DNA of 41,406 bases from contig JAILPJ010000055.1 in the NCBI GenBank assembly GCA_024699605.1, forward strand, positions 1 through 41,406, in the 5' to 3' direction. The notes beneath the pieces were generated by a model that saw only the letters and a program-made list of their open reading frames with translations, made no database searches and was not told the origin of the DNA. Position 1 is the stretch's first letter; each line of letters opens with the position of its first letter. Below, piece after piece: positions 2,221 through 32,426 of the stretch. Both the position numbers and the translations under genes were made by a program. This DNA is from Desulfovibrio sp. (GTDB lineage Bacteria > Desulfobacterota > Desulfovibrionia > Desulfovibrionales > Desulfovibrionaceae).

Positions 2221-2697
2221 AACAGTGCGCCGCGACGAACCTCAACAATCAGTGTGACAATGCCAGAAGCTCTTGACTTCCTGGCGCGCTGCCATTAACA
2301 GAAAATAAAGAGGCCCCGGTTGTGATCCCACCACTACCGGGGCCGAGTCTTTACAAGGGGCGACTAGCCCCAAAATCGGAAGCAGAGGACTGAGGCGAGA
2401 CACACCACTTTGGCCGTAATTTCCACGGACAGGCCGATTCTCGTTTCCACGCCCTTTTTTTTGAAGAATACCGGTCAACTTTTGCAACTCTGTAGCGCTC
2501 CATGCCCAAGGACTGTTCGATTGACGAGATCGTTCTTCATCAGGCGCTCGCTAGCAGCAGCTTATATAATTACATGTTGCGATATTCTTTTCTTCAATAT
2601 ACACTGATATCTTACAGATAAAAAGAAAGAGCATCATAAAACACTTTACTCTATTACTAATTAAGACTCTTCGCCATCTGCCGGCATGGAGAAAACT
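2221..2697. other. Gene-poor gap with two hairpins
   Basis: I see no convincing gene in these 477 bases. It holds a strong hairpin at 2312-2344 that reads as a minus-strand terminator, and a small one at 2357-2371 (ggggc/gcccc). An AT-rich stretch lies at about 2560-2665, plausibly the promoter region of the gene at 2698. On the minus strand a 28-codon frame (2450 down to 2364) ends just before the hairpins, but it lacks a good ribosome binding site. Confidence 0.5.
2300..2344 (-). terminator. Rho-independent terminator, minus-strand orientation
   Basis: Nine-base arms ggccccggt (2312-2320) and accggggcc (2336-2344) form a GC-rich stem with a 15-base loop. On the minus strand the stem is followed by a T-rich stretch (tctttattttc), whereas the plus-strand side has only a weak T run. 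No recognised minus-strand gene feeds into it, so it may end a small RNA or a vanished gene. Confidence 0.6.
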
Positions 2698-3126
2698 ATG
2701 GGCAAAAAGCCTAACAACAAAACACGTGTTGCCCATCGCGGTGACTGGAAAACAGAGCCAATGCCTGAACAGCATGAGACGTTCGTTCTTAAAAGGTCTT
2801 TCAGCGCTGAGGAAATGGACGCGCTCCGGCGCGGCAATATTCCGCAGGCTATGGAAGATAAGTGGTTTTGGTATATGGAGCGATCAACGCTTTTTGCCCA
2901 CCGCAGCTGGACAGGATTCTGCATTTATCAAATTGACTTTACAGAAGACAATAATCATATCGTGACGGTCAACCGCGATCCCAAACAGTACAGGTGCACC
3001 AGCATCGAAGAGGACATCGATTCATTAAACAAGCTTTTAACCTGGTGGACCAAGACCCCCTATGATCACTATCATGAGTGGCTTTCGGAAACAGGCGACA
3101 TCTTGAAGAAAGCAGGCAAGGTGTAG
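2698..3126 (+). CDS. Conserved hypothetical protein
   Basis: The start is taken at the ATG at 2698, because GGAGA at 2688-2692 sits at the correct distance; the in-frame ATG at 2686 has no such site. The product is about 142 residues, soluble, rich in aromatic and charged residues, with no signal peptide or membrane segment. Its recognisable core runs SFSAEEMDALRRGNIP, KWFWYMERSTLFAHRSW and a tail with TSIEEDIDSLNKLLTWW. I recall similar segments in bacterial proteins annotated only as hypothetical, sometimes next to or fused to macro (ADP-ribose-binding) domains, but that link is weak memory and I assign no function. It stands alone between the metallo-hydrolase operon and the convergent DUF1848 gene. 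Confidence 0.65.
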   Translation: MGKKPNNKTRVAHRGDWKTEPMPEQHETFVLKRSFSAEEMDALRRGNIPQAMEDKWFWYMERSTLFAHRSWTGFCIYQIDFTEDNNHIVTVNRDPKQYRCTSIEEDIDSLNKLLTWWTKTPYDHYHEWLSETGDILKKAGKV

Positions 3127-3267
3127 TGTGGAAGACAACTTCGCGTTGGCAGGCTGACAGCCAATGGGAATCAGCGAAGGAAAGCACAAGCTCCCTGCCA
3201 AAAGCCTGGCACCATTGCAATCGAGTTTCTGGCAAACAAGGTGGGATCCTTTGCGTCAAAAAAGCGC

Positions 3268-4248
3268 TCAGGCTTTTTTTTCCAGGTTTCCCTCCTTCCC
3301 AGACGAGCAAAGGTCAAGCAAGGAATTCTGCCGTGGCAAAAGCAACGATGGCATTCGTCCCTGACAGACCTGATCATTGGCTCCAAGCTGATCACAGAGC
3401 ATGGGCGAAAGTGGATCGTGTGCCTGCCAGCGTTTTCTGGCCAGAGCGTGATTGCTATTCGCATAGCAGTAGAGACAACCATGGGGGCAGGTATCGTAGG
3501 CGCCCATATCGCGCCAGTCCATGCAGCGGCAACCTTTCCGCTCCCCGCCTTTGCGCCCGTTGGGCTTTATGACACAGCCAGTGGCCTCTCCGAGCCGTTC
3601 GGCGCTGGCACAACCTGATGCCCGAACACCCAGATGACTGAAACTTTGCGTTGTGCCGCAGCTTTGCAGCAGTATTTCTCTTTTTTGGGCAATCTTCGCT
3701 AGCCCACTGACCAGGGCTTCACGTTCCCAAGCCTCAAGCGGACGTGCCTGGGGAAAATTACGCCTGACCTTGCGATACATCTCCAGAAAAGAAAAAATGC
3801 ACAGATCAACCTTGCCCTGCAGTTTCGCCGCAAGGTGGTCAAAGATGGCCAAATGCTCTTTCAGGCCATAGGCCTCTGTGAAAAGAAGAGGATCATAGCG
3901 CCAGACGACTCGTCGTTTTCCAGCCAGAGAGGCTACTTCCAAAAGATACTCGCAGGCCTCATCCACTGGTGGCACCAGAGGTTCAAGATCGCTGCCATAG
4001 GCAGTGATGGTGGCATGCAGAACCAGCCGAAAGCGTCGCAAAAGGGTTGGGAGATAGGCGAGCATCGGGCCCCAGTTTTTGGAACAGAGCAACAGCACGT
4101 CAATATGGGCAGGATCAAAATCATAGCGCAAAACCTGAGTGGGATAACGGGGATTGCGTGAGTAAAACCAGCCGGCTTCCATGCGGTTCATCAACCACTC
4201 AGCATAAAAAGCGGGAATATCCGTCCGACCTGAAGCATTTACGATCAT
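3268..4248 (-). CDS. DUF1848 family protein with clustered cysteines
   Basis: The 326-residue protein begins MIVNASGRTDIPAFYAEW and contains RNPRYPTQVLRYDFDP and WRYDPLLF, hallmarks of the DUF1848 family. Its most telling feature is a cysteine cluster at residues 240, 242, 254, 258 and 261 (GCRCMDWRDMG, then CPHGCLYCYAN). The CxxxCxxC arrangement resembles that of radical SAM enzymes and suggests an iron-sulfur cluster; no reaction is established for the family. The last ~50 residues are poorly conserved in character. The gene is transcribed away from the receptor gene at 4613 and converges on the hypothetical gene at 2698. An A/T hairpin overlapping its stop (3258-3281) is at best a weak terminator. 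Confidence 0.8.
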   Translation of the reverse strand: MIVNASGRTDIPAFYAEWLMNRMEAGWFYSRNPRYPTQVLRYDFDPAHIDVLLLCSKNWGPMLAYLPTLLRRFRLVLHATITAYGSDLEPLVPPVDEACEYLLEVASLAGKRRVVWRYDPLLFTEAYGLKEHLAIFDHLAAKLQGKVDLCIFSFLEMYRKVRRNFPQARPLEAWEREALVSGLAKIAQKREILLQSCGTTQSFSHLGVRASGCASAERLGEATGCVIKPNGRKGGERKGCRCMDWRDMGAYDTCPHGCLYCYANSNHALARKRWQAHDPLSPMLCDQLGANDQVCQGRMPSLLLPRQNSLLDLCSSGKEGNLEKKA

Positions 4249-4612
4249 TGCTCATCCCAAAAAGCCCCTGGCGCAACTTGCCTCCAAGGCTATGCAGATC
4301 TTCTGATCAGCTGAAGCGTGCGCCAGGCTCTGCTGCCAAGGTGTAGGCCGTGTGATAAGGATGCGGCGCTTTTGTGGTAGCAGAGAAAAAATTCAAGGCC
4401 TTGGCGCAAAAGGAGCGTGACTCGGAAAACCTCCAAGAACAGCCATGGCTTCCTCTCCCTGAAAGACACTCTGCCACACGCTCTGGCTGATCAAATGGGT
4501 GCTTGGAACGGGGAAGCCCTGAACAGGAAGCCTTCCCAAAGCAAACAAAATAGGATAGGGAAGCCAAAAAATCTTCTCAGCTTCCAACCGCTTTTTTTGT
4601 TAGGAGTTGCTC
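4249..4612. other. Divergent intergenic region between DUF1848 and the HD-GYP receptor
   Basis: These 364 bases separate two divergent genes and must carry both promoters. I find no open frame with a ribosome binding site, no RNA gene and no clear palindromic operator. Near the end TAGGAG at 4601-4606 is the ribosome binding site for the ATG at 4613. Confidence 0.4.
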
Positions 4613-6286
4613 ATGGATGCCGAGTCGGAAAAAAGTACGTCTCTTCAGCAAACATCCAAAGCCAAGACAAACGAAGGCTATCAAAGCAAAAAGTCCTTTG
4701 ACAACATTTATATTGCCTTGGCCGCTATTCTGATCGTAGCGGTCGTCGTTTATCTCGCCTATTTTTATTACAACAACCACCGCGAGCCCAAAGTCCGTAT
4801 TCAGCCAAAAAACTGCTTTGCCGAAACCCTCACCGTGGTCACCGACATTGATTACAATCCCTTCTCCTATGTCAATGCTGAAGGCCAATACGCCGGTTTT
4901 GACGTTGAACTGATCAATGAGGTGGCTAACAGACTGGAAATGAATCTTGATCTCAAGCTCATGAACTGGTCTGATGCGCAAAAAGCGGTCTTTTCCCAGG
5001 AAGCGCAGGTTATCCTGAATATGGAAACCGACTATGTGGCCCAGGATCAGAGCATTATTTCTACCCTGCCCACAGTTGAAAAACAATACGTGATCTATGG
5101 CCGCGAAATCGTCTCTTCCATCACCCAGCTCTATGGTCGCCGTGTGGCCTCTCTGCACTCCTTGCCGGCTCTTGGGCTGAACCGTGAAATCACCTACCTG
5201 CCTTCGTATAAAGAGATCTTTGACGGCCTGAAAAATGGCGATTTTGATTTTGCGGTCTGCCCCATCCAGGTGGGCAATTATTTTCTGGGAAAGCTCAAGC
5301 TCACCGATGTCCACCCCAGCTATGCCGTCAGCCATGTCTACGGCGCCATGGTGCTTTTGGAAAGTAACAGAGAATTGCGCGACAGGATCAATCCCATTCT
5401 CAGAGATCTCTGGCGTGAAGGCTTCTTCGCCTATCTCACGGAAAAATGGGTGCATCACTACTACGTCAATACCACCTTCAAAGATTACATCACCCGCCAC
5501 CCATGGATCTGGCCTTCGGCCTTTCTGATTATCTTAACCGCCGCTCTGGCCATTATGTATTTACGCAGCAAGGCCAGAGAAAGAACAGCGCGTGAAGAAT
5601 ACGCCCGACAGGCCAAATACATTGAGACCATTGAATTTCAAAGACAAAAACTGATCGAAGCCAATCGCGCCAGTGAACAGCGTACCCTGGAAATCTCCGA
5701 AGCCCTGATCAGCATTCTCGGTGCCCGTGATCCCAACCTCAATGGACACAGTCAGCATGTGCAGAACCTGACGCTTCTGCTCTATGAGCATCTTCCGCAA
5801 ACCCTGCGTTCAGGTATCAACCGTTCGGATTTAAGCTATGCGGCACTCTTCCACGACGTGGGCAAGATGGGCATTCCTGAAAGCATCTTGAATAAACCAA
5901 GCAAACTCGACGACGACGAATGGGCGATCATGAAAAAACACCCGCAGATCTCAACGGAAATCCTCTCCTCAGTCTCGTCGTTTAAAACCATTGAAAAATG
6001 GGTGCTCTACCACCATGAACGCATCGATGGGCACGGCTATTACAATGTGCCCGGCGAGCTCATTCCCTTTGCTGCCAAGATGATCGCCATAGCCGACACC
6101 TATTCAGCCATCACCATGCGCCGCTCGTATAAGGATCCCAAAAGCCATGAACAGGCTGTGACCGTGCTGCAAGAGATCAAAGGCAAACAGCTGGACAGCG
6201 AGCTCGTCGATATCTTCTGTGCCATTGACCAGGACGAACTTTTGCGCTGCGCTCCGGCCAATCTGGGAGCGTTCCGCAAATGGTGA
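4613..6286 (+). CDS. Membrane receptor: periplasmic solute-binding (SBP_bac_3) domain plus HD-GYP phosphodiesterase domain
   Basis: The 557-residue protein has a charged cytoplasmic start and a first membrane helix at about 32-53. A type-3 solute-binding domain follows at about 70-285 (TVVTDIDYNPFSYVNAEGQYAGFDVEL is typical of amino-acid-binding proteins; quoted in part as DYNPFSYVN and GFDVELINEV). A second helix lies at about 298-317, then a coiled linker and an HD-GYP domain from about 360. The HD pair is at 414-415 (FHDVGKMG) and the HHER motif at 467-470, but the GYP signature reads GYY at 475-477. HD-GYP domains hydrolyse cyclic-di-GMP; a periplasmic amino acid or similar ligand presumably controls it. 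ATG 4613 is preferred over the TTG at 4607, which overlaps the spacer of the TAGGAG site. Confidence 0.85.
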   Translation: MDAESEKSTSLQQTSKAKTNEGYQSKKSFDNIYIALAAILIVAVVVYLAYFYYNNHREPKVRIQPKNCFAETLTVVTDIDYNPFSYVNAEGQYAGFDVELINEVANRLEMNLDLKLMNWSDAQKAVFSQEAQVILNMETDYVAQDQSIISTLPTVEKQYVIYGREIVSSITQLYGRRVASLHSLPALGLNREITYLPSYKEIFDGLKNGDFDFAVCPIQVGNYFLGKLKLTDVHPSYAVSHVYGAMVLLESNRELRDRINPILRDLWREGFFAYLTEKWVHHYYVNTTFKDYITRHPWIWPSAFLIILTAALAIMYLRSKARERTAREEYARQAKYIETIEFQRQKLIEANRASEQRTLEISEALISILGARDPNLNGHSQHVQNLTLLLYEHLPQTLRSGINRSDLSYAALFHDVGKMGIPESILNKPSKLDDDEWAIMKKHPQISTEILSSVSSFKTIEKWVLYHHERIDGHGYYNVPGELIPFAAKMIAIADTYSAITMRRSYKDPKSHEQAVTVLQEIKGKQLDSELVDIFCAIDQDELLRCAPANLGAFRKW

Positions 6287-23257: not shown

Positions 23258-23883
23258 CTTTGGTCACGGGCTAAGCAGTCAAACAGGTTGATTCCCAGTA
23301 TCACACATGGTATTTTCTTTTCATGGATAATTTCGGTGACATAAGGAAACGAAGCGATCTGACGTATGGTCGCGGCTACGTCTATTCCATCCAGTATCAT
23401 ATCGTTTGGTGTACGAAATATCGGAAAAAAGTTTTCGTCGAAACTGTCAAGGATAGCGTGGAGCAGCATCTGAGAAAGCTGGCCTGCGATTATGACTTTA
23501 CGATCGACAGCATGGAAGTAATGCCGGACCATGTGCATCTGCTTGTCGACTGTAGTCCGCAGTTCGAGATACCCAGGATGATCAAGATCCTGAAGGGAAA
23601 TATAGCGAGATGGGTCTTTCTGGAATTTCCGCATCTGAAAGCAGAGCTCTGTGGAGGACATCTGTGGAACCCGTCGTACTGCGTAGTCACCGTCAGTGAC
23701 AGAAGCCTCGAGCAGGTCAGGCATTACATCGCGACACAGGAAGAACGGCCATAACGATCTTGACGAGCGACAAGCTGAAAATCAGGTCTTACAGCCGGCT
23801 ATTCGGGCAGACCGCAAGCCACTCAAGGGCAACCGAAACAGACTTAGGTCCATTTGCAACATAAGCAAGCCCATGACCTAGTC
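23228..23883 (+). mobile_element. IS200/IS605-type insertion sequence (tnpA only)
   Basis: The left end is set by the start of similarity to the remnant at 16929. It includes a perfect hairpin cgtgac/gtcacg (23253-23268), as expected for single-strand transposons. The right end is tentative: an imperfect inverted repeat gacttaggtc (23841-23850) / gacctagtc (23875-23883) could be the right-end hairpin. There are no terminal inverted repeats, as normal for this group. Only tnpA is present. A faint frame after tnpA (KIRSYSRLFGQT) could be a decayed tnpB start, but I do not trust it. Confidence 0.7.
23323..23754 (+). CDS. tnpA: IS200/IS605-family transposase TnpA (Y1 HUH)
   Basis: The 143-residue protein is a complete Y1-type transposase: an opening SIQYHIVWCTKYRKKVF, the HUH metal motif DHVHLLVDC (His70 and His72) and the catalytic tyrosine in QVRHYIATQ (about Tyr135). 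The segment LWNPSYCVVTV between them is also typical. It cuts and joins single-stranded DNA at hairpin-marked ends. All key residues are present, so it may be active. The ATG lies about 65 bases inside the left hairpin. It has no obvious ribosome binding site, common in this family, where translation is kept low. Confidence 0.93.
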   Translation: MDNFGDIRKRSDLTYGRGYVYSIQYHIVWCTKYRKKVFVETVKDSVEQHLRKLACDYDFTIDSMEVMPDHVHLLVDCSPQFEIPRMIKILKGNIARWVFLEFPHLKAELCGGHLWNPSYCVVTVSDRSLEQVRHYIATQEERP

Positions 23884-24859: not shown

Positions 24860-25324
24860 TTAGCCTTCTTCCTGGGAACAGGCGTGACAAATGCCCTGCA
24901 TTTCGATTGAGCCGTTTTCCAGCGCCATCCCCAATTCCCCAAAGCGTTTTTTGAGCGCCACATAGAGCTCAGGATCGTCCATTTCCTGCGCTTTTTTGCA
25001 GCGTGAGCAGACAAAGAGCAAGAGCGAATTGTCGTGATGTTCACAGGTACAGGGAAGATAGCTGTTGAGTGAAGCGATTTTGTGCACAAGACCGCAGTCC
25101 ACCAGAAAATCAAGGATGCGGTAGATGGTGGCTGGCGTCAGACGTCTTTTGGCGTGGCTCAGACTCTCAAGCAAATCGTAGGCCTTGACCGGCTTCTGGG
25201 CTTCAAGCAAATGCACCAGCACCTGACGCCTGAGCGGTGTCAGGCGCATCTTGCGCTGCTGACAAATACGTTCGGCAAGTTGCAAACCCAAACGGACACA
25301 GTCTTCAGATGCCGCTTTTGCCAT
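24860..25324 (-). CDS. zur: Zur-like zinc uptake regulator (Fur family)
   Basis: The 154-residue protein is a Fur-family repressor: a winged helix (LTPLRRQVLVHLLEAQKPVKAYDLLESL, quoted in part as LTPLRRQVL and KAYDLLESL), TPATIYRILDFLVDCGLVHKI, and two CxxC pairs (FVCSRC and GICHAC) for a structural zinc, with CTCEHHDNS as part of the sensing site. The IYRILDFLVDCGLVHKIASLN wording is closer to Zur than to Fur or PerR. With zinc bound it should repress zinc-uptake genes. It lies 33 bases after the DUF3299-ZIP gene, same strand, as last gene of the zinc operon, so it may be auto-regulated. ATG 25324 follows GGGAG; the TTG six bases earlier is less suitable. Confidence 0.8.
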   Translation of the reverse strand: MAKAASEDCVRLGLQLAERICQQRKMRLTPLRRQVLVHLLEAQKPVKAYDLLESLSHAKRRLTPATIYRILDFLVDCGLVHKIASLNSYLPCTCEHHDNSLLLFVCSRCKKAQEMDDPELYVALKKRFGELGMALENGSIEMQGICHACSQEEG

Positions 25325-25357
25325 GACCAACTCTCCCGCTGATGGTTGCCTTGGCCG

Positions 25358-26512
25358 TTAAAAAAGACCCAAATAGAGCGTAAGCATAATCACAAAAAGC
25401 AGCAGAAAGCCGAAAGCAATCCCCCAGACCACGCGCTTGGGCTTGCCCAAAGCCAGTGCCGTGGGCAAGAGTTCGGCGCAGGCCAGGGCAAAGAGCACAC
25501 CGCCGGCAGCGGCCATCAAAAGCCGCATCCCTTCCGGCGTGACATAGGCGCGAACAAAGGCGTGGGCGGCAATGGCGAGCAGTGGCGGCAGAATACCGGC
25601 GAGCAAAGAGCAGGTATAGGCACGCGAACTTTTTGTGAACCCCATGGCCAGAGAGATGCCCACAGGGATATTGTGCGCAAGCATGGCCAGAGCCAGAGCA
25701 AAACCCATGGGTCCGTTGGAGAGTGTGAGGGTCAGCACAAAAAAACACTCAGGGAAATTGTGCAGACCAAGTCCCGCGGCCACGGCCAGTTCATTCTGCG
25801 CTTTGCCACCATGACGGTGGCGTCGCATAAGCCAAACGATCAGCAGCAAAAGCGAGCCAAAAGCGATACACGACGCCAGGGCAAAATTGGCCACAAGGGC
25901 TGCAATCCCAAGCCCCATGAGCATGCCGCAAGCCACACTCATACCCAGACAGCTCAGATCGGCCGACAGTCTGCGACCGGCAAAAGGCCCGATCCAGCCA
26001 AGACAGACTGAAATGCCACATAACAAGGTCAAGAACCAGGCTTTGACTTCGCGGCCGCTCTCGGCCTTTTCCCGCACAAGGTCCGCGTTTTCAAGCTCAT
26101 AGCCGGCCTGACCGTCTTCGCTATCCACAGAAAGCCGGCCTGTCACGCTGGCGACATCCATGGTTTCAATGCCCTTGGCCGCCCTGGGAAGGCGCACATG
26201 CACAATCTGATTGGCAGGCGGCGGCGGCACGTGGATGCAGGCACCAAAATAGGGTACGAGCAAGAATTCGCAGAGATTATTGTCAGCGTCGCGCTCAAGG
26301 GGCACCACAAAGCCTTTCAGGACGATTTCCTGTCCCTGAAGCGAGCTGTTCACGGCGCCCTTAAGGGCCAGCGCTTGATCTCTTGGCAAAAGATCTGCCC
26401 AGCTTACGGTCCTTGGCTCGGCCCAAAGCCTTGCCGGCAAGAGCAGAAAACAGCCGACGAGACTCAAAAGCACAAGCCAATGAGGCCAAACTCCAAAAGG
26501 CGTCTTCATCAT
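25358..26512 (-). CDS. Fusion of a periplasmic DUF3299 domain and a ZIP-family metal permease
   Basis: The 384-residue protein has a signal/anchor helix (about 12-31) and a DUF3299 domain at about 35-145 (VSWADLLP, LKGFVVPLE, FLLVPYFGACIHVPPPP). After about 156 it has seven or eight helices of the ZIP type. Helix 4 carries HNFPE (251-255) and helix 5 HNIPV (280-284). In ZupT/GufA relatives these read HNFPEG and HNIPEG, so the Gly after the first motif is Cys and a metal-ligand Glu in helix 5 is Val. DUF3299 is the ZrgE-type component of Zur-regulated zinc loci. The fusion suggests zinc delivered in the periplasm is handed straight to a permease. It overlaps the preceding permease gene by four bases (ATGA). 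Confidence 0.8.
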   Translation of the reverse strand: MMKTPFGVWPHWLVLLSLVGCFLLLPARLWAEPRTVSWADLLPRDQALALKGAVNSSLQGQEIVLKGFVVPLERDADNNLCEFLLVPYFGACIHVPPPPANQIVHVRLPRAAKGIETMDVASVTGRLSVDSEDGQAGYELENADLVREKAESGREVKAWFLTLLCGISVCLGWIGPFAGRRLSADLSCLGMSVACGMLMGLGIAALVANFALASCIAFGSLLLLIVWLMRRHRHGGKAQNELAVAAGLGLHNFPECFFVLTLTLSNGPMGFALALAMLAHNIPVGISLAMGFTKSSRAYTCSLLAGILPPLLAIAAHAFVRAYVTPEGMRLLMAAAGGVLFALACAELLPTALALGKPKRVVWGIAFGFLLLFVIMLTLYLGLF

Positions 26513-27771
26513 ACGGATACCGTCAGCCCGTCCGAAAGACTCATGCGATAGGCTTTACAGGCCGGTAAAAGACTTGCACAAAAACCAGACAGACAGATCG
26601 CCAAAAGCAGCAGCCATTCACCGCTGCTGGGAGCTGTCAGGGCCAGAAAGACGCCATAGTGCTCGGCCAGGAATGGCGCACACAAGGCCAAAAGCGCATA
26701 AATCACCACAAGCCCAAGGCCTGTGCCTGAGAGCACAAGGAGCAAACCTTCCATAGCCATCAGCCAAAGGATGTCAACGGGACTGGCGCCGGCAGAACGC
26801 AGCACAGCCAGCTCGCGCCTGCGTTCACCAAGACCGGCCAAAATGGCTGCGGCCAGACCGGCCAGACCGACCACGGTCACCAGGGCTGAAATCACCAAAA
26901 GGGCCTGTTCCCCCACACTGACCATCTCCCAGATCTGATTCATGGCCACTCCCGGCAAAACCGCCGTCAACGGCTCACCAGGGCCTTCATTGATCTCGCG
27001 TTGCAGGGCAAAGACCTGGGAGCGCTTTTTCAGCCCCACAAGCAGGGCTGTGATGGCGCGGGGTTCAAGCTTGGTCAGATTTTCCGCAACAAGCGGCTGA
27101 TCCTGATGCAGACCGTTTTGCCAATTGAGATGAATGGCTTCCATGGCCTCGAGGCTGATATAGAGCGAGCGGTCAACAGGGGTTCCGGTTGGCGCAAGCA
27201 GGCCTGAAACCGTAAAAGGATTGGCCGAATGCTCAGCTTGTGCATTGCCGCTCTGACCGTGGCTTAAGACAATTTTGCTTCCCAGCTGATAGCCCAGGCT
27301 ACGCGCCACTTCCGCTCCAAGCACCACGTCAAACAGGGCCTCTGGTGCATGCCCCTCAGCCATGCGCAGAGCAAGGCCGTGACGGTAGCGGAACTTTTCG
27401 TAAAAGACAGCGTTGGTCGCCACCACGGGAAAATCGCGGTGCGTATCCCCCAGGGAAATGGGAATGGTAAAGGCCACCTGAGGCTTTTGGGCAAGGGCTT
27501 TGGCTGTGTCATAGCCCATATTATTGGTGGCACTGCCGAGATGAAAAACCGCGTAGAGCACAAGCTGCAGGCTGCTTCCTCGCGCCCCGATCACCAGGTC
27601 AAGACCTGAGACGGCCTGCACAAAATTGTCCCGCACCTGAGCGCGCAGCTTTTCAATCCCCAAAAGCAGCGTTGTGGAAAGCGCAATGGAAAGGACAATC
27701 AAAAGCAGTGTGCCCCGCCTGTTCCAGGCGCTTTTGCAGGCTAATTGCCAGAGATAGGTAAAGTGCCCCAT
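26509..27771 (-). CDS. ABC transporter permease (FtsX/MacB type), ZrgC-like
   Basis: The 420-residue protein has one N-terminal helix (LLLIVLSIALSTTLLLG), a large periplasmic domain (about 45-275, MacB_PCD type), and three C-terminal helices with GERRRELAVLRSAGASPVDIL between them. This is the FtsX-family signature loop that contacts the ATPase. The layout is that of the LolC/MacB/FtsX group, which works by mechanical transmission rather than by classical import. In Zur-regulated loci such a permease accompanies DUF2796 and DUF3299 proteins (V. cholerae zrg, P. aeruginosa PA4063-4066), and the same partners are here. It overlaps the ATPase gene by one base (TAATG) and the ZIP fusion by four. 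Confidence 0.8.
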   Translation of the reverse strand: MGHFTYLWQLACKSAWNRRGTLLLIVLSIALSTTLLLGIEKLRAQVRDNFVQAVSGLDLVIGARGSSLQLVLYAVFHLGSATNNMGYDTAKALAQKPQVAFTIPISLGDTHRDFPVVATNAVFYEKFRYRHGLALRMAEGHAPEALFDVVLGAEVARSLGYQLGSKIVLSHGQSGNAQAEHSANPFTVSGLLAPTGTPVDRSLYISLEAMEAIHLNWQNGLHQDQPLVAENLTKLEPRAITALLVGLKKRSQVFALQREINEGPGEPLTAVLPGVAMNQIWEMVSVGEQALLVISALVTVVGLAGLAAAILAGLGERRRELAVLRSAGASPVDILWLMAMEGLLLVLSGTGLGLVVIYALLALCAPFLAEHYGVFLALTAPSSGEWLLLLAICLSGFCASLLPACKAYRMSLSDGLTVSV

Positions 27772-28505
27772 TAGCCTTCCTCCACGCTGGCTCGATTGAT
27801 GTCTTGCATACGCACCATTCGGGGAAAAGCCTCAGCCAGGAGCTCATCGTGACTGACAAAGAGCAGGGCCGTGCCCTGACTGGTACATTCTTCAAGTAAT
27901 AGATGAAGAAACGCCACACGCCGGTCAGCGTCAAGGGCAGACGTTGGTTCATCGGCAATAATCAGCTCCGGCAGACCGATCAGCGCCCGTGCACAGGCCA
28001 CCCGCTGCTGCTGACCAATGGACAGTGTCCGTACGGGCTTGCTCCAAAGCGTCTTTTCAAGATCTAAACGCTGTAAAAGCATAGCCGCCACCTCATCAAG
28101 ATTGGCCCCCTGCTTTTCGGCACGTTTGCGTCGAAAAGGCGAAAAATGGCAAGGGATCAGCACGTTTTCCACAACGGAGAGATAGGGAACCAGATTGAAC
28201 TGTTGAAAAATAAAGCCGATATGTTCACCCCGAAAGCGATCGCGTCCGGCACTGCCAAGCTCATCAAGATCAGTCCCCTGAACGAGGATCTGACCGCTCG
28301 TAGGCGATAAGATTCCCGCAATAAGCCCCAAGAGCGTGCTTTTGCCGCAACCACTGGGGCCAGAAACAAAAACGCGTTCCCCACGGCTCATGGAAAAATG
28401 CGGAATGTCCAATGTGTCACGGGGAGAGCCTGGCCAGCGAAAACGCACATTTTCTAGCGCTATGGCCAACGTCTCGTGCTCTTGACCTTCACTTGCTTGC
28501 TGCAT
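27771..28505 (-). CDS. ABC transporter ATPase (LolD/MacB type), ZrgB-like
   Basis: The 244-residue ATPase has Walker A GPSGCGKST at about 49-57, Q-loop FIFQQFNLVPYL, signature LSIGQQQR, Walker B LIIADEPTSALD and the H-loop FVSHDE. The signature has Ile in place of the usual Gly (LSGGQ), a mild deviation seen in this branch. The NLVPYLSVVENVLIP wording is that of the LolD/MacB group, matching the FtsX-type permease that follows with a one-base overlap. Start: ATG 28505 with GAGGG just before it; the frame opens 21 bases earlier. It is the first gene of the operon ATPase-permease-DUF3299/ZIP-zur. Confidence 0.85.
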   Translation of the reverse strand: MQQASEGQEHETLAIALENVRFRWPGSPRDTLDIPHFSMSRGERVFVSGPSGCGKSTLLGLIAGILSPTSGQILVQGTDLDELGSAGRDRFRGEHIGFIFQQFNLVPYLSVVENVLIPCHFSPFRRKRAEKQGANLDEVAAMLLQRLDLEKTLWSKPVRTLSIGQQQRVACARALIGLPELIIADEPTSALDADRRVAFLHLLLEECTSQGTALLFVSHDELLAEAFPRMVRMQDINRASVEEG

Positions 28506-28639
28506 TCTGCCCTCAAATTCCATCATCAGATTCTTGGCAAAGGACCCAGGCCTTGAGGCCGAGCCTCAAGACCGCCTTCCTTTGGTTATTGCTCTTAGGC
28601 TTGTCTGAAGACAAGCTGTCCACCCGCAGAGAAAGTGCC

Positions 28640-29560
28640 AAAAACATTATAAAAACGTATAATACGACTAGTTCTTTTGCCCTTCTCTCTCTTTGGCAGT
28701 CTTTGTCAAAAGCTTCTCGCTAAAGACTTATTTCCCCTTTTAGCTCTTCCAACACAGCTCTTAGCTTATTTGCACGCTGCCTGTCTAACTGCTGGCTTAC
28801 GATAGTTAGCGTTTGAAGCATATCTTCAAACACTTCCTGTTCATCAGTTTTTTCTTCACTCTTAATGATTTCAATTTTTACATTATGTAAATCAGCAAAA
28901 TTTTTGATTAAGTCAAAACCTAAGCGTACAAGTCGATCCTGATGAAGAAGAACGATCTTTGCTATTTTTTCTGAATCTATTAACGCGAAAAGTTCTTTCA
29001 AACCTTCCTTATTATAATCAATTCCAGAGCCAACGTCTTCAATAATTTTAAATTCTCTTGCTTCTTTTTGCAAATACTCTTTTACAACTTCAACTTGTTG
29101 AGCTAAGTCCGTCTTCTGGCTTTCAGTTGCGACACGACAATATCCTACAGAGATACGATTATCTTTTTCAGTATTATTGGTAATTTTTTGGAGTTGTTGT
29201 TCCGAATAATATCTATTACCATTTGGATCCGTGTGATGCGGTTTTAATTTTCCTGAAACATCCCAATTTCTTAAGGTCTGCGCCGAAACACCTAAAATCT
29301 TACGAAATGTACGCAAAGAGTAAAATTTTTGTTCCATATAGTCTTCCAGAGAAACGCTAACGCTGTTAAAAAAAATAGCATGATAAGCAAAGGTATCGTA
29401 TTTGGCTTTAAATAGCATGCTTAAGTAATAGATTACAAAGACAAAAAGAAAGCAAGGTATAAGTTTTTAGAGATTTTTGAAGACGCTAACAAGCAAGACC
29501 ACGTTTTCCATAGCTTGCAAGCCATACACAAGCCGTCTTGGGACAACGAAAAGGAAAAAA
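28640..29560 (-). mobile_element. IS607-type element (approximate limits, tnpA only)
   Basis: The limits are estimated from the abrupt change to AT-rich DNA on both sides of the recombinase gene. IS607 elements have no terminal inverted repeats or target duplications, so sequence alone does not set the ends. No tnpB follows tnpA. It sits between the Zur-like box at 29570 and the ATPase gene at 28505. The right part contains a TATAAT on the minus strand (28646-28651) and an 11-base palindrome cgtataatacg (28656-28666), which may drive the zinc operon now. Confidence 0.5.
28720..29337 (-). CDS. tnpA: IS607-family serine recombinase TnpA with missing catalytic serine
   Basis: The 205-residue protein has a MerR-like DNA-binding start (YSLRTFRKILGVSAQTLRNWD, in part SAQTLRNWDVSGKLKPH) and a serine-recombinase domain (GYCRVATESQKTDLAQQ, LLHQDRLVRLGFDLI). 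This small MerR-plus-resolvase plan is specific to IS607. In active members the motif reads YxRVS, the Ser being the nucleophile. Here codon 70 is GCA (29128-29130), giving RVA, one base from TCA. The recombinase is therefore expected to be unable to cleave DNA but able to bind it. GGAAG precedes ATG 29337. Codon use is clearly more AT-rich than in neighbours, a sign of transfer. Confidence 0.85.
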   Translation of the reverse strand: MEQKFYSLRTFRKILGVSAQTLRNWDVSGKLKPHHTDPNGNRYYSEQQLQKITNNTEKDNRISVGYCRVATESQKTDLAQQVEVVKEYLQKEAREFKIIEDVGSGIDYNKEGLKELFALIDSEKIAKIVLLHQDRLVRLGFDLIKNFADLHNVKIEIIKSEEKTDEQEVFEDMLQTLTIVSQQLDRQRANKLRAVLEELKGEISL

Positions 29561-29569
29561 AGCCGGGCG

Positions 29570-29591
29570 AAAAAATGATATATCGTAGCAT
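29570..29591 (-). promoter_or_regulatory. Putative Zur operator B
   Basis: The core aatgatatatcgtagcat (29574-29591) matches 17 of 18 bases of the box at 32332-32349 upstream of the ZrgA-type gene, in the same orientation. It is partly palindromic around gatata/tatatc and AT-rich, like Fur-family sites. It lies upstream of the zinc operon but on the far side of the IS607 element. Confidence 0.5.
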
Positions 29592-30017
29592 TTTTGTCAA
29601 TGCCTAAGACAGCAATCCGCCCAGGCAAATGAAGGTGGTAGGCGCAAGGCCCAGCGCAGACAGATTCAGAAAGGCTGCCTCCAAAGGCCCAAACGGAAAA
29701 ATAGTTACGCCGAGCGTGACAGGCCTTTCAAAATCAAAGAGCTACTTGCCATCCCATTTAGAATAGACTACTCTTTTTGTACAGGTAAAGGTGTAACAGG
29801 CTGGCTCCTTTTTGGTACCTTAAAGCGGTTCCCAAAATTGAGCCTATTTTTTACCATCCCTGCAAAGACTCTTCCTCTCAGTCTCTTACGTTGCCAGCAA
29901 GAGACCTCAGTTTTTTCTTGCAGAATCGAAGTTTGCGACCTTTCCCCATATGCCTTCCCAACCATCAACTGACAAAGACCACTACTGGTGTCAGCTGCTC
30001 AGCAGGAGCTACCTATT
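29592..30017. other. Intergenic leader of the GGDEF-EAL gene at 30018
   Basis: These 426 bases contain no convincing gene. The main structure is a terminator-like hairpin at 29803-29852 on the plus strand. AGGAG at 30004-30008 is the ribosome binding site for the GTG at 30018. A minus-strand frame (29968 down to 29768) lacks family resemblance and I do not call it. Confidence 0.4.
29803..29852 (+). terminator. Terminator-like hairpin in the leader of the GGDEF-EAL gene
   Basis: ggctc (29803-29807) pairs with gagcc (29840-29844) and ttttgg (29810-29815) with ccaaaa (29832-29837) inside it; a run of six T (29847-29852) follows. No plus-strand gene ends before it, so it would end a short RNA or act as an attenuator 165 bases before the start codon at 30018. 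Confidence 0.5.
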
Positions 30018-31628
30018 GTGAACGCTGCAGAAAAAGCCATCCTGACGAAACTCTTGGAAGGTCGCTACAATGAGGCAATACTGGACCTCAAGAATATTGA
30101 CGATCAGGCCAGTGAGGAGCTTTTGCGCGCTGTTGTTCTTGGCCTTTCCGAAGCCTCAGGCTTCGCCCAGGCTCTCTGTGAAGGTCGCTTGGCTGCCGTT
30201 CCCCCGTCTGCGAGTAATCCCTTCTGCAAGAGCTTAACCAGCCTGCAAAAGCTTCTGGGCCAAAAGCAAAAAAGGGCCAAGGAGAAACCACCGCGCTCTG
30301 ACCGGGTTTTTGACAAGGATGTGGAAACAGGCCTGCTCAGCCGCAGAGCCTTTCTCTGGGAAGTCCGTGATCTTCTGGAAAACGATGCCAAGGCAACGGG
30401 CGTGATGTTCTCCGTGGGACTCGACAATCTCCGCTATGTCAACGACAGGCACGGCTACGAAAGCGGTGATCTCTACATTGCCAAGGTTGTGGAAATCCTC
30501 AAGATGTGCCAAGCGCCCAATGTGCGCCTGTCACGACCGGCCGGTGATGAATTTGCTGTCTACGCGCACGGTTTTGACAGCGAGACTGAAGCCCTTGAAT
30601 TTGCCCAGCAGACCCGCAAACGCCTATTGAACACCATTCTCGAACTGCCCGGGGAAACCGTGCGGCTCAGAACCTCACAAGGGGCTGCCCTCTATCCCGC
30701 TGACGCCATGACCAGTGACGTGCTCTTGAACTATGCGACCCACGCCATGTTCAGTGTGCAGAATTTCAACCGCGGCACGTTCATGCGCTTTAATCCTGAG
30801 GTCTACCGCGCCAAGGCCTCCATGCTCAGCCGGCAGGAGCGCCTGGACGAACTGCTTGAGGAACGCCGCATCCACTTCGCCTTTCAGCCTGTTGTCAACC
30901 TCCACGACGCCACAATTTACGGTTATGAAGCCCTGATGCGCTCCACCCGCTCAGATTTCCCCTCTCCCCTGGACATTCTGCAGCTGGCCGAAGTGCAGTA
31001 CAAACTGCCCCAACTTGAGTATGTGACCTTTCTCGTGATCTTTGACTGGGTGGCTGAAAACCTCAATCGTCTTGGCTCCAAAAAAGTCTTCTTCAACGTC
31101 ATCACGGCCAATTATCTCAATGACCGAGATCTCAGCAGACTGAACACAAACTTCATGGATATCCTGCGCCATATGGTCATTGAGATCACCGAGACCTCGT
31201 CCATTGAAGGGGAAATGACCAGGCGCATCAATCAATTCCGCAAGGACTTCTCCACGCTGATCGCCATTGACGACTATGGCTGCGCCTATTCCAATATCTA
31301 CCGTTTGCTCAATCTCTTGCCCGAGATCGTCAAGCTTGACCGTTTCTTTATCAGCGATATCCACAAGGCCTCACCTGACCGCAAAAGGCTCATCGGCGGC
31401 TTTTTAAACTACTGCCACAGCAAGAATATCCTCACCGTGGCCGAAGGCGTTGAAACTGTTGAGGAACTGGAAGCTGTCATTAAAATGGGCTTTGACCTCT
31501 GCCAAGGCTATTACCTGGGGCGGCCTGAATTTGAACTGCGCGAGATTGCCCCGCAGCAAACCGAAGAAATTCTCCGTTTTGCCGCCGAGACAAAAGATCT
31601 GCCACAACATCAAGATCTGATCATCTAG
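30018..31628 (+). CDS. GGDEF-EAL dual-domain cyclic-di-GMP protein
   Basis: From the GTG at 30018 (AGGAG nine bases before it) the protein is 536 residues, with no membrane helix. An N-terminal helical ~90 residues lead to a GGDEF domain with AGDEF (175-179) in place of GGDEF, and ASP-containing GLDNLRYVNDRHGY. A variant first glycine can still be active, so cyclase function is open. The EAL domain has EAL at 304-306 (YGYEALMRS), FFNVIT, EITET, AIDDYG, VKLDR and EGVE, so phosphodiesterase activity is likely. It is divergent from the IS607 element and convergent with the ZrgA-type gene, i.e. it interrupts the zinc locus. Strong terminator at 31651. Confidence 0.85.
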   Translation: MNAAEKAILTKLLEGRYNEAILDLKNIDDQASEELLRAVVLGLSEASGFAQALCEGRLAAVPPSASNPFCKSLTSLQKLLGQKQKRAKEKPPRSDRVFDKDVETGLLSRRAFLWEVRDLLENDAKATGVMFSVGLDNLRYVNDRHGYESGDLYIAKVVEILKMCQAPNVRLSRPAGDEFAVYAHGFDSETEALEFAQQTRKRLLNTILELPGETVRLRTSQGAALYPADAMTSDVLLNYATHAMFSVQNFNRGTFMRFNPEVYRAKASMLSRQERLDELLEERRIHFAFQPVVNLHDATIYGYEALMRSTRSDFPSPLDILQLAEVQYKLPQLEYVTFLVIFDWVAENLNRLGSKKVFFNVITANYLNDRDLSRLNTNFMDILRHMVIEITETSSIEGEMTRRINQFRKDFSTLIAIDDYGCAYSNIYRLLNLLPEIVKLDRFFISDIHKASPDRKRLIGGFLNYCHSKNILTVAEGVETVEELEAVIKMGFDLCQGYYLGRPEFELREIAPQQTEEILRFAAETKDLPQHQDLII

Positions 31629-31650
31629 CCTTAGGCCATCCGTATTTTAT

Positions 31651-31687
31651 GCCAGAGCCCCGCAAAAGGGCTCTGGCCTTTTTTTTT
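31651..31687 (+). terminator. Rho-independent terminator
   Basis: gccagagccc (31651-31660) pairs perfectly with gggctctggc (31668-31677) across a seven-base loop, then c and nine T residues. Ends the GGDEF-EAL gene. Confidence 0.92.
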
Positions 31688-31769
31688 CACGGCTTGCGGC
31701 AAAGTGCTTTGCCCGCAACACGCGTTTTTTTGTCCATTGTTCAGTCGTTTTCAGCGTGGCAACCAGGCT

Positions 31770-32300
31770 CTACCAGCGAAAAACCCGTTCGGCCGGCCGC
31801 AAATGGGCCCCGCTTTGCCGGTCTGGTCCGACACAAGCAAGCTCCACCTCATGCAGAGCGGGAAATTGAGCAAAAAGCGCAAGCTCGAGACTGTGCAATT
31901 TTTCTGGCTGCTGGCAGGTGAAGGCTACGACCAGGTGAATATTGGCGTGTTCATGCCCGGCCACGTGTTCATGCCCTGCCTCATGCGCATGCCCGGCCTC
32001 GAGCAGCTCGGCTGAAAGCGATGTGACCTGCAGACGGCACTGCGCTTCAGGGCTTAGCAGAAACAGGGTTTCCGGTTTGCCTAACGCGCCAAGCAAGGCT
32101 TGGGCCGCTTGTTTTTCCTCTGCTGTTTGCGGCGCATGCTCAAAGGGCAAAAAATTGGCCTGCGCTGAATGCAGTTCCAGCTCCCCGCCAGCGCCTTCCA
32201 GAGCCATGTTCAAGTGGGCCAGCCCATGCACATGGGCTTCATGAGCGGAAACAGGCAGAGAACAGAGCAAAAGGAACAGAAAAAGAAGGCTTTTGAGCAT
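31770..32300 (-). CDS. zrgA: Histidine-rich periplasmic zinc-binding protein (DUF2796, ZrgA-like)
   Basis: The 176-residue protein has a signal peptide (MLKSLLFLFLLLCSLPVSA) directly followed by HEAHVHGLAHLNMAL, the hallmark start of DUF2796. A histidine-rich loop (AGHAHEAGHEHVAGHEHAN, about 115-135) can bind several zinc ions. The protein keeps the paired cysteines of the family (CRLQVTS and FTCQQP). In V. cholerae (ZrgA) and P. aeruginosa (PA4063) relatives are Zur-repressed and act with an FtsX-type ABC transporter. Here the partners are about 3.3 kb away. ATG 32300 follows AGGAG; the frame opens upstream without meaning. The Zur-like box A lies 28-49 bases upstream. Confidence 0.85.
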   Translation of the reverse strand: MLKSLLFLFLLLCSLPVSAHEAHVHGLAHLNMALEGAGGELELHSAQANFLPFEHAPQTAEEKQAAQALLGALGKPETLFLLSPEAQCRLQVTSLSAELLEAGHAHEAGHEHVAGHEHANIHLVVAFTCQQPEKLHSLELALFAQFPALHEVELACVGPDRQSGAHLRPAERVFRW

Positions 32301-32327
32301 ACGAGCTCCTTGTTTGTTAAGAAATGA

Positions 32328-32349
32328 ATACAATGATATATCGTTGCAT
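32328..32349 (-). promoter_or_regulatory. Putative Zur operator A upstream of the ZrgA-like gene
   Basis: A 22-base palindrome with two mismatched pairs, whose right part is aatgatatatcgttgcat (32332-32349). It lies 28-49 bases before the ATG of the zinc-binding protein gene. Length, AT-rich centre and the TGCAA/TTGTA-like half sites resemble Fur-family operators such as Zur boxes. The same core recurs at 29574. Confidence 0.6.
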
Positions 32350-32426
32350 TTTTCAACACTGACAAAACTGCCAGAGCCTTTGGAACGCACGCTGCACCCC
32401 AAAGACAGCCTTGCCGCAAAAAGGCC

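What the first reader, a model, noticed from the sequence alone, without database searches (positions are those of the whole stretch)
29570..32349. Two near-identical palindromic boxes: likely Zur operators, one cut off from its operon by an IS607 element
Cores at 29574-29591 and 32332-32349 match at 17 of 18 bases in the same orientation. Box A stands 28-49 bases before the zinc-binding protein gene. Box B points towards the ATPase-permease-DUF3299/ZIP-zur operon, but about 0.9 kb of AT-rich IS607 DNA lies between them. If the element is removed, box B would fall within about 200 bases of the ATPase start. The simplest reading is that the element landed between operator/promoter and operon, so half of the zinc system may have lost Zur control or gained a new promoter.
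Basis: partly seen in the sequence, partly recalled or inferred. Interest (0 to 1): 0.75.

Follow-up and report, generated by a model that had tools for sequence, protein, structure and literature searches.

The report
Transposon inside a zinc operon's leader
In a Desulfovibrio-related genome, a small, probably dead transposon has landed between a conserved zinc-sensing switch and the zinc-uptake genes it controls, most likely putting the transposon's own gene under zinc control; this is an ordinary kind of event, seen here unusually clearly.

Summary
The boxes match at 17 of 18 bases and are the only such sites in the 2.76-Mb assembly. They are very probably Zur operators: among 79 genomes of the genus, a box with at most 2 mismatches occurs in 13 of 16 that carry the zrg zinc operon and 3 of 63 others; 2 of those 3 lie before zur-znu genes. 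One half-site of the zrgA box equals the published Desulfovibrio Zur half-site (PMC545781); TTGACA abuts 17 of 20 sites. The nearest relatives, G081 and G083, have the same gene order without the IS607 gene: box 66-67 nt before the ATPase start, against 1,068 nt here. So the element landed between operator and operon. Lost Zur control is not shown. TTGACA and box are intact, tnpA points the operon's way, only one weak terminator-like site intervenes, and no ZnuA-type importer was found here; read-through with tnpA as first, zinc-controlled cistron is most likely, but untested. TnpA has Ala at the catalytic Ser; no tnpB was found. The zrgA/ATPase split is older, due to a GGDEF-EAL gene shared by three genomes.

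The parts
29574..29592 (-). Zur-type operator facing the ATPase operon (AATGCTACGATATATCATT on the - strand), now about 1.07 kb from that gene
   Evidence: two relatives have such a box 66-67 nt before the ATPase
29595..29600 (-). TTGACA hexamer two bases from the operator: -35 candidate; no consensus -10 was found for it
   Evidence: exact in 17 of 20 aligned sites at the same offset; the promoter scans do not list it
32332..32350 (-). Zur-type operator of zrgA (AATGCAACGATATATCATT on the - strand)
   Evidence: lacks the TTGACA
31770..32300 (-). zrgA, ZrgA-family zinc uptake protein
   Evidence: PF10986 E 5e-42; NF047873 E 1.5e-26, below its curated cut-off
28632..29500 (-). IS607-like element without tnpB; ends are my estimates from a sub-terminal inverted repeat (28641-28661 / 29458-29478, 76% complementary) and from the left ends of related copies
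   Evidence: ends inferred
28720..29337 (-). tnpA, IS607-family serine transposase, intact 205-aa frame, catalytic Ser replaced by Ala (YCRVATESQ)
   Evidence: NF033518 above cut-off; alignments to PDB 3lhk, 3ilx, 3lhf and genus copies
27771..28505 (-). zrgC-like ABC ATPase; start placed at 28505
26509..27771 (-). zrgB-like FtsX/MacB-type permease
25358..26512 (-). zrgE-like DUF3299 domain fused to a ZIP transporter domain
   Evidence: ZIP part below Pfam's cut-off; ZupT E 1.9e-20, below its cut-off
24860..25330 (-). zur, Fur-family regulator, last gene of the operon
   Evidence: PF01475; best NCBIfam match Zur E 9e-31, below its cut-off
29988..31628 (+). GGDEF-EAL gene separating zrgA from the ATPase operon in this clade (start perhaps 30018)

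Best explanation
Both boxes are Zur operators at promoters of a ZrgABC(E)-type zinc-uptake system. Zinc-loaded Zur should repress at both; under zinc shortage both promoters open (inferred from Zur biology and from Vibrio zrg). In this lineage an IS607-like element of about 0.9 kb, tnpA only, inserted just downstream of the intact TTGACA-plus-operator unit of the ATPase-permease-DUF3299/ZIP-zur operon (supported by two relatives with the empty arrangement). The operon is most likely still transcribed from that promoter by read-through of tnpA, which has become its first, zinc-controlled cistron (inferred, about 0.6). TnpA has lost its catalytic serine, so the element is probably no longer mobile by itself (sequence shown, inactivity inferred).
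For: Box distribution: 13 of 16 zrg-operon genomes against 3 of 63 others, Fisher p 1e-9. 18 of the 19 sites found at up to 2 mismatches lie upstream of zrg or zur-znu genes; the other is inside a coding gene. The three zrg genomes without such a box have 3-mismatch forms. 31 of 48 further loci have a strong best matrix hit within 900 bp upstream of the operon. Half-site ATGCAAC (7 of 7 in the zrgA box, 6 of 7 in the other) and 7-3-7 layout as in the predicted Desulfovibrio ZUR signal (PMC545781). TTGACA in 17 of 20 sites. Empty arrangement in G081 and G083. tnpA is co-oriented; one weak terminator-like site only on the sense strand. Changes unique to window / G083: ATPase 10/9, permease 23/23, Zur 11/15. 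No ZnuA-family importer found in this 94.7% complete assembly. Ala at the catalytic Ser.
Against: No binding or transcript data exist. The second half of the box matches the published half-site at 4 of 7. No consensus -10 was found for the TTGACA in the window or in G083, and the window's zrgA box lacks the TTGACA. Read-through is only inferred: the weak terminator-like site (29547-29532) lies between box and tnpA, and the count of such sites on both strands, 4, exceeds the 1.7 +/- 1.2 of shuffles; about 235 nt of untranslated leader before tnpA and 215 nt after it could allow Rho-dependent termination; hairpins lie just upstream of the ATPase (z -1.76). Two zinc proteins have more unique changes in the window than in G083: DUF3299-ZIP 39 against 29, ZrgA 12 against 6 (a neighbouring kinase outside the system has 84 against 58). 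The insertion is known from one draft contig, its exact ends are not proven, and if it is recent, open frames say little about expression.
Confidence: 0.7

Rival explanations
1. The element uncouples the operon from Zur: transcription from the old promoter ends in or after the leader or tnpA, and the ATPase operon, with zur itself, is driven by a new promoter inside or next to the element.
For: Minus-strand promoter-like sites inside tnpA (29073-29045, 29001-28974) and a weak terminator-like site before tnpA; about 1 kb of added leader, AT-rich.
Against: Promoter-like sites on both strands number 4 against 2.2 +/- 1.6 in shuffles and none of them lies in 28505-28720 on the minus strand; no strong sense-strand terminator.
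Confidence: 0.25
2. The insertion is a polar knock-out: the operon and zur are hardly expressed and zrgA is constitutively derepressed.
For: Insertion in a leader often reduces expression (general knowledge); leader hairpins exist; DUF3299-ZIP has more unique changes than in G083 (39 against 29).
Against: The downstream frames are open, and ATPase, permease and Zur show no excess of changes. No ZnuA-family importer was found in the assembly, so the cell would lack a recognised high-affinity zinc importer.
Confidence: 0.1
3. The boxes are sites of another regulator (another Fur-family protein such as Fur or PerR) or a structural promoter element, not Zur.
For: No binding test; the box is only part-palindromic.
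Against: The box precedes two different zinc operons (zrg and zur-znu), both with a zur-like gene, and one half equals the published Desulfovibrio ZUR half-site.
Confidence: 0.06
4. Assembly artefact: the tnpA stretch was joined into the contig by mistake.
For: Single fragmented draft genome (114 contigs).
Against: Two false joins would be needed; tnpA relatives at 51-57% identity occur in the same assembly (C45) and in G083, so the gene type belongs to these bacteria.
Confidence: 0.04

Closest known systems
Predicted ZUR site of Desulfovibrio, ATGCAACnnnGTTGCAT, upstream of znuABC-zur_D (PMC545781, passages seen)
   Same: Half-site ATGCAAC and 7-3-7 layout; regulator gene in the same operon
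   Different: Second half is ATATCAT (4 of 7); the target here is the zrg system
Zur-repressed zrgABCDE operon of Vibrio (PMC9817125, passages seen)
   Same: ZrgA, ATPase, permease and DUF3299 protein; a putative Zur site upstream; repression by Zur reported there
   Different: Here DUF3299 is fused to a ZIP domain, zur is in the operon, zrgA is split off by a GGDEF-EAL gene, and an IS sits in the leader
IS607 family (PMC6188088, abstract and passages seen)
   Same: N-terminal DNA-binding domain (MerR-type by Pfam) followed by a serine-recombinase domain; a sub-terminal repeat between the ends
   Different: No tnpB, and the catalytic serine is Ala; GG termini not proven

Membership tests
Zur operator | Conserved palindromic site upstream of zinc-uptake genes in relatives | tested here: met
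   13 of 16 zrg genomes against 3 of 63 others; 31 of 48 other loci
Zur operator | Match to the published Zur signal of the group | tested here: inconclusive
   Half-sites 7 of 7 (box 32332) or 6 of 7 (box 29574), and 4 of 7, against ATGCAACnnnGTTGCAT
Zur operator | Zinc-dependent binding by Zur | not testable with these tools
   Needs protein-DNA binding tests
ZrgABCDE zinc-uptake system | ZrgA (DUF2796), ATPase, permease and DUF3299 genes together | tested here: met
   gene order in relatives; names from PMC9817125
ZrgABCDE zinc-uptake system | ZrgD (DUF2607) gene | not tested
   No search made for it
IS607 family | TnpA of the family | tested here: met
   NF033518 165.7 bits, cut-off 110
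IS607 family | Catalytic serine (RVS motif) | tested here: not met
   Ala in its place: a derived, probably inactive relative, so not filed as an active member
IS607 family | GG at both termini and at the target | tested here: inconclusive
   Candidate GG on both sides by eye, ends not proven
IS607 family | Accompanying tnpB (not required for transposition, PMC6188088) | tested here: not met
   PF01385 finds none in the assembly

The most novel reading that the evidence does not exclude
The catalytically dead TnpA has been kept as a zinc-starvation-induced DNA-binding protein: its MerR-like domain binds the old element ends in the operon's leader and adds a second, transposon-derived layer of control to the zinc operon.
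Probability: 0.05. Interest if true: 0.6.

Novelty: new member of a known kind. Interest (0 to 1): 0.3.

Why it matters
It extends the predicted Desulfovibrio Zur signal to the little-studied Zrg zinc system and gives a clean before-and-after case of a transposon landing in a regulated leader without destroying the switch. It also makes two simple predictions: tnpA mRNA should rise when zinc is scarce, and the operon should still be read through it.

Tried and rejected
TnpA relatives in genome contigs: none confirmed. Plasmid search: 189 records, all below 60% identity, so no sister copy to fix the ends. Near-identical copy in the genus: none seen in 79 genomes, where at most 5 candidates a genome were scored; the other matches were 68% (own C45), 66% (G081) and 77% over 115 bases (G078) (the own genome was scored in full). 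Rfam: no match in the window. Exact empty site by alignment: the non-coding leaders are too diverged; only spacing is used, counted by me. Left-end alignment of related copies is suggestive, not proof. Considered and rejected: that the IS split zrgA from the ATPase operon. A GGDEF-EAL gene does this in G081 and G083 too; of 57 loci with both genes (some genomes counted twice), 53 have a gap of at most 219 bp and 4, which are those two genomes twice, have 1.8-2.4 kb. Paper searches listed none whose title or abstract start tells of an IS in a Zur-controlled zrg leader; the library holds open-licence papers only. PMC7029138 (passages) was not a precedent.

Of these, 31 had a strong hit within 900 bp upstream, 1 had one at 1,192 bp (L149), and 16 had no hit above 4 bits (one of them, L118, has no upstream DNA). 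The 11-bit line between strong and weak was drawn after seeing the scores; the matrix included the window's two sites, that did not. The G015 site was dropped from the 20 aligned sites because it lies in a coding gene. Of 13 IS607 matches over the cut-off, 10 were aligned; G081:C17 (frameshifted), G014:C7 and G014:C45 were left out.

Full report
What was checked. The 22-base form has no chance match in 100 shuffles of the window, and the 19-base form at up to 3 mismatches occurs nowhere else in the 2.76-Mb assembly except as a mirror overlapping the second box. A matrix built without the window's own sites scores them 32.8 and 26.6; the best window position not overlapping a box scores 1.5.

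What the boxes are. Among 79 genomes of the genus, 16 contain a box with at most 2 mismatches, 19 sites in all; the reversed pattern gives 2 matches. 16 of the 19 sites lie upstream of the zrgA or ATPase gene of the zrg operon, 2 lie upstream of zur-znu genes in G025 and G068 and 1, in G015, lies inside a coding gene. The zrg permease occurs in 16 of 79 genomes at E up to 1e-30; 13 of those 16 have the box, against 3 of the other 63 (Fisher p 1e-9). The three misses are G010 and G031, with a 3-mismatch form, and G079, with a TTGACA and a 3-mismatch box about 1 kb before zrgA. In 48 further loci the best matrix hit is strong (11 bits or more, a line drawn after seeing the scores) and within 900 bp upstream of the operon in 31, strong but 1,192 bp away in 1, and absent in 16; no locus had a strong best hit anywhere else. 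The boxes read ATGCAAC-nnn-ATATCAT (zrgA) and ATGCTAC-nnn-ATATCAT (ATPase side); the ZUR signal predicted for Desulfovibrio in 2004 is ATGCAACnnnGTTGCAT (PMC545781, passages). A TTGACA hexamer stands two bases before the box in 17 of 20 aligned sites; the three exceptions are the zrgA boxes of the window, G081 and G010. The promoter scans found no consensus -10 to go with it, so the promoter itself is inferred. A repressor site overlapping a promoter is the natural reading. Binding was not tested.

What the system is. zrgA, an ABC ATPase, an FtsX/MacB-type permease, a DUF3299-ZIP fusion and a Fur-family regulator closest to Zur correspond to the Zur-repressed ZrgABCDE zinc system of Vibrio (PMC9817125, passages). 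No ZnuA-family protein was found in this assembly (94.7% complete); 70 of 79 genomes of the genus have one. G081 also has none, and G083 has one low-scoring member (63 bits). Zrg may thus be this organism's main high-affinity importer.

The insertion. G081 and G083, the two nearest relatives by the permease (81% and 84% identity; the next is 65%), have the order ATPase operon / box / GGDEF-EAL / zrgA / box, as in the window, but no tnpA between box and ATPase. Box-to-ATG distance is 66 nt in G083 and 67 nt in G081, against 1,068 nt in the window (counted). The window's organism is therefore probably a rumen Desulfovibrio; this is inferred. The insert contains tnpA (IS607 family) at 35% GC. An inverted repeat, 28641-28661 with 29458-29478, 76% complementary and one of 16 pairs found, may mark its ends; a similar AT-rich motif precedes the own-genome copy at C45 (by eye). 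From this I place the element at about 28632-29500. The ends are estimates.

State of the element. TnpA is an open 205-aa frame but has Ala where 3lhk, 3ilx and 3lhf have Ser in the RVS motif. Among 10 of the 13 genus copies over the cut-off, the window, G079 and G014:C48 have Ala there and the G083:C141 copy has a gap; the other 6 have Ser. No tnpB was found in the assembly. No near-identical copy was seen in the 79 genomes, with at most 5 candidates a genome scored. The insertion therefore looks old or decayed rather than fresh.

What follows for control. TTGACA and operator are intact and tnpA runs in the operon's direction. The sense-strand scan finds one weak terminator-like site, between box and tnpA; on both strands 4 such sites were found against 1.7 +/- 1.2 expected, and 4 promoter-like sites against 2.2 +/- 1.6. 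Hairpins lie before the ATPase gene (z -1.76; 11 of 200 shuffles fold as well). Changes unique to the window against G083 are ATPase 10/9, permease 23/23, Zur 11/15, DUF3299-ZIP 39/29, ZrgA 12/6, and for neighbours GGDEF-EAL 27/29 and the kinase 84/58. I favour read-through, with tnpA as a zinc-controlled first cistron, at about 0.6. Loss of Zur control remains possible at about 0.25.

An older event. The split of zrgA from the ATPase operon is due to a GGDEF-EAL gene found there in the window, G081 and G083; in 53 of 57 loci with both genes they are at most 219 bp apart, and the other 4 are those two relatives, each counted twice. Each half carries its own box, so a second operator arose with that split, by duplication or anew; by eye only about 28 bases around the boxes are alike.

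Verdict. It is a clear example of a known kind of event, hence modest interest.

Noticed in passing
window 29988-31628: A GGDEF-EAL gene separates zrgA from its ATPase operon in the window, G081 and G083 and in none of the other loci examined, and each half then has its own Zur box: an operon split with operator gain.
   Followed up: partly
L183 4793-5842 (G079): In G079 a TTGACA plus 3-mismatch box lies about 1 kb before zrgA, with no obvious gene between and a weaker box-like site at 5139: a possible independent case of a stretched Zur leader.
   Followed up: partly
L109 2621-3782: In Wohlfahrtiimonas the same box precedes a longer ZrgA protein (373 aa) with an extra N-terminal part, perhaps ZinT-like (recalled, not tested); L116 and L130 have the box at a similar distance. 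Box and operon also occur in records labelled beta-proteobacteria and Campylobacterota, which suggests transfer of operon, regulator and operator together, if those labels are right.
   Followed up: partly
genus set: Six of the nine genomes without a ZnuA-family match carry the zrg permease (some of the nine are incomplete), so Zrg may replace Znu.
   Followed up: partly
L073 3114-3734 (G000:C45): A second tnpA relative in the same assembly keeps the catalytic Ser but has lost both arginines of the DRLxR motif; it lies near a gene resembling a secretion-system export protein (by eye).
   Followed up: partly
L074 (G081:C17) about 2400-5031: An IS607 element with broken tnpA and tnpB frames (tnpB by eye) interrupts a gene whose two parts lie on either side of it.
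   Followed up: no
window 23323-23754: IS200-type tyrosine transposase gene (PF01797), another mobile gene close to the zinc cluster.
   Followed up: no
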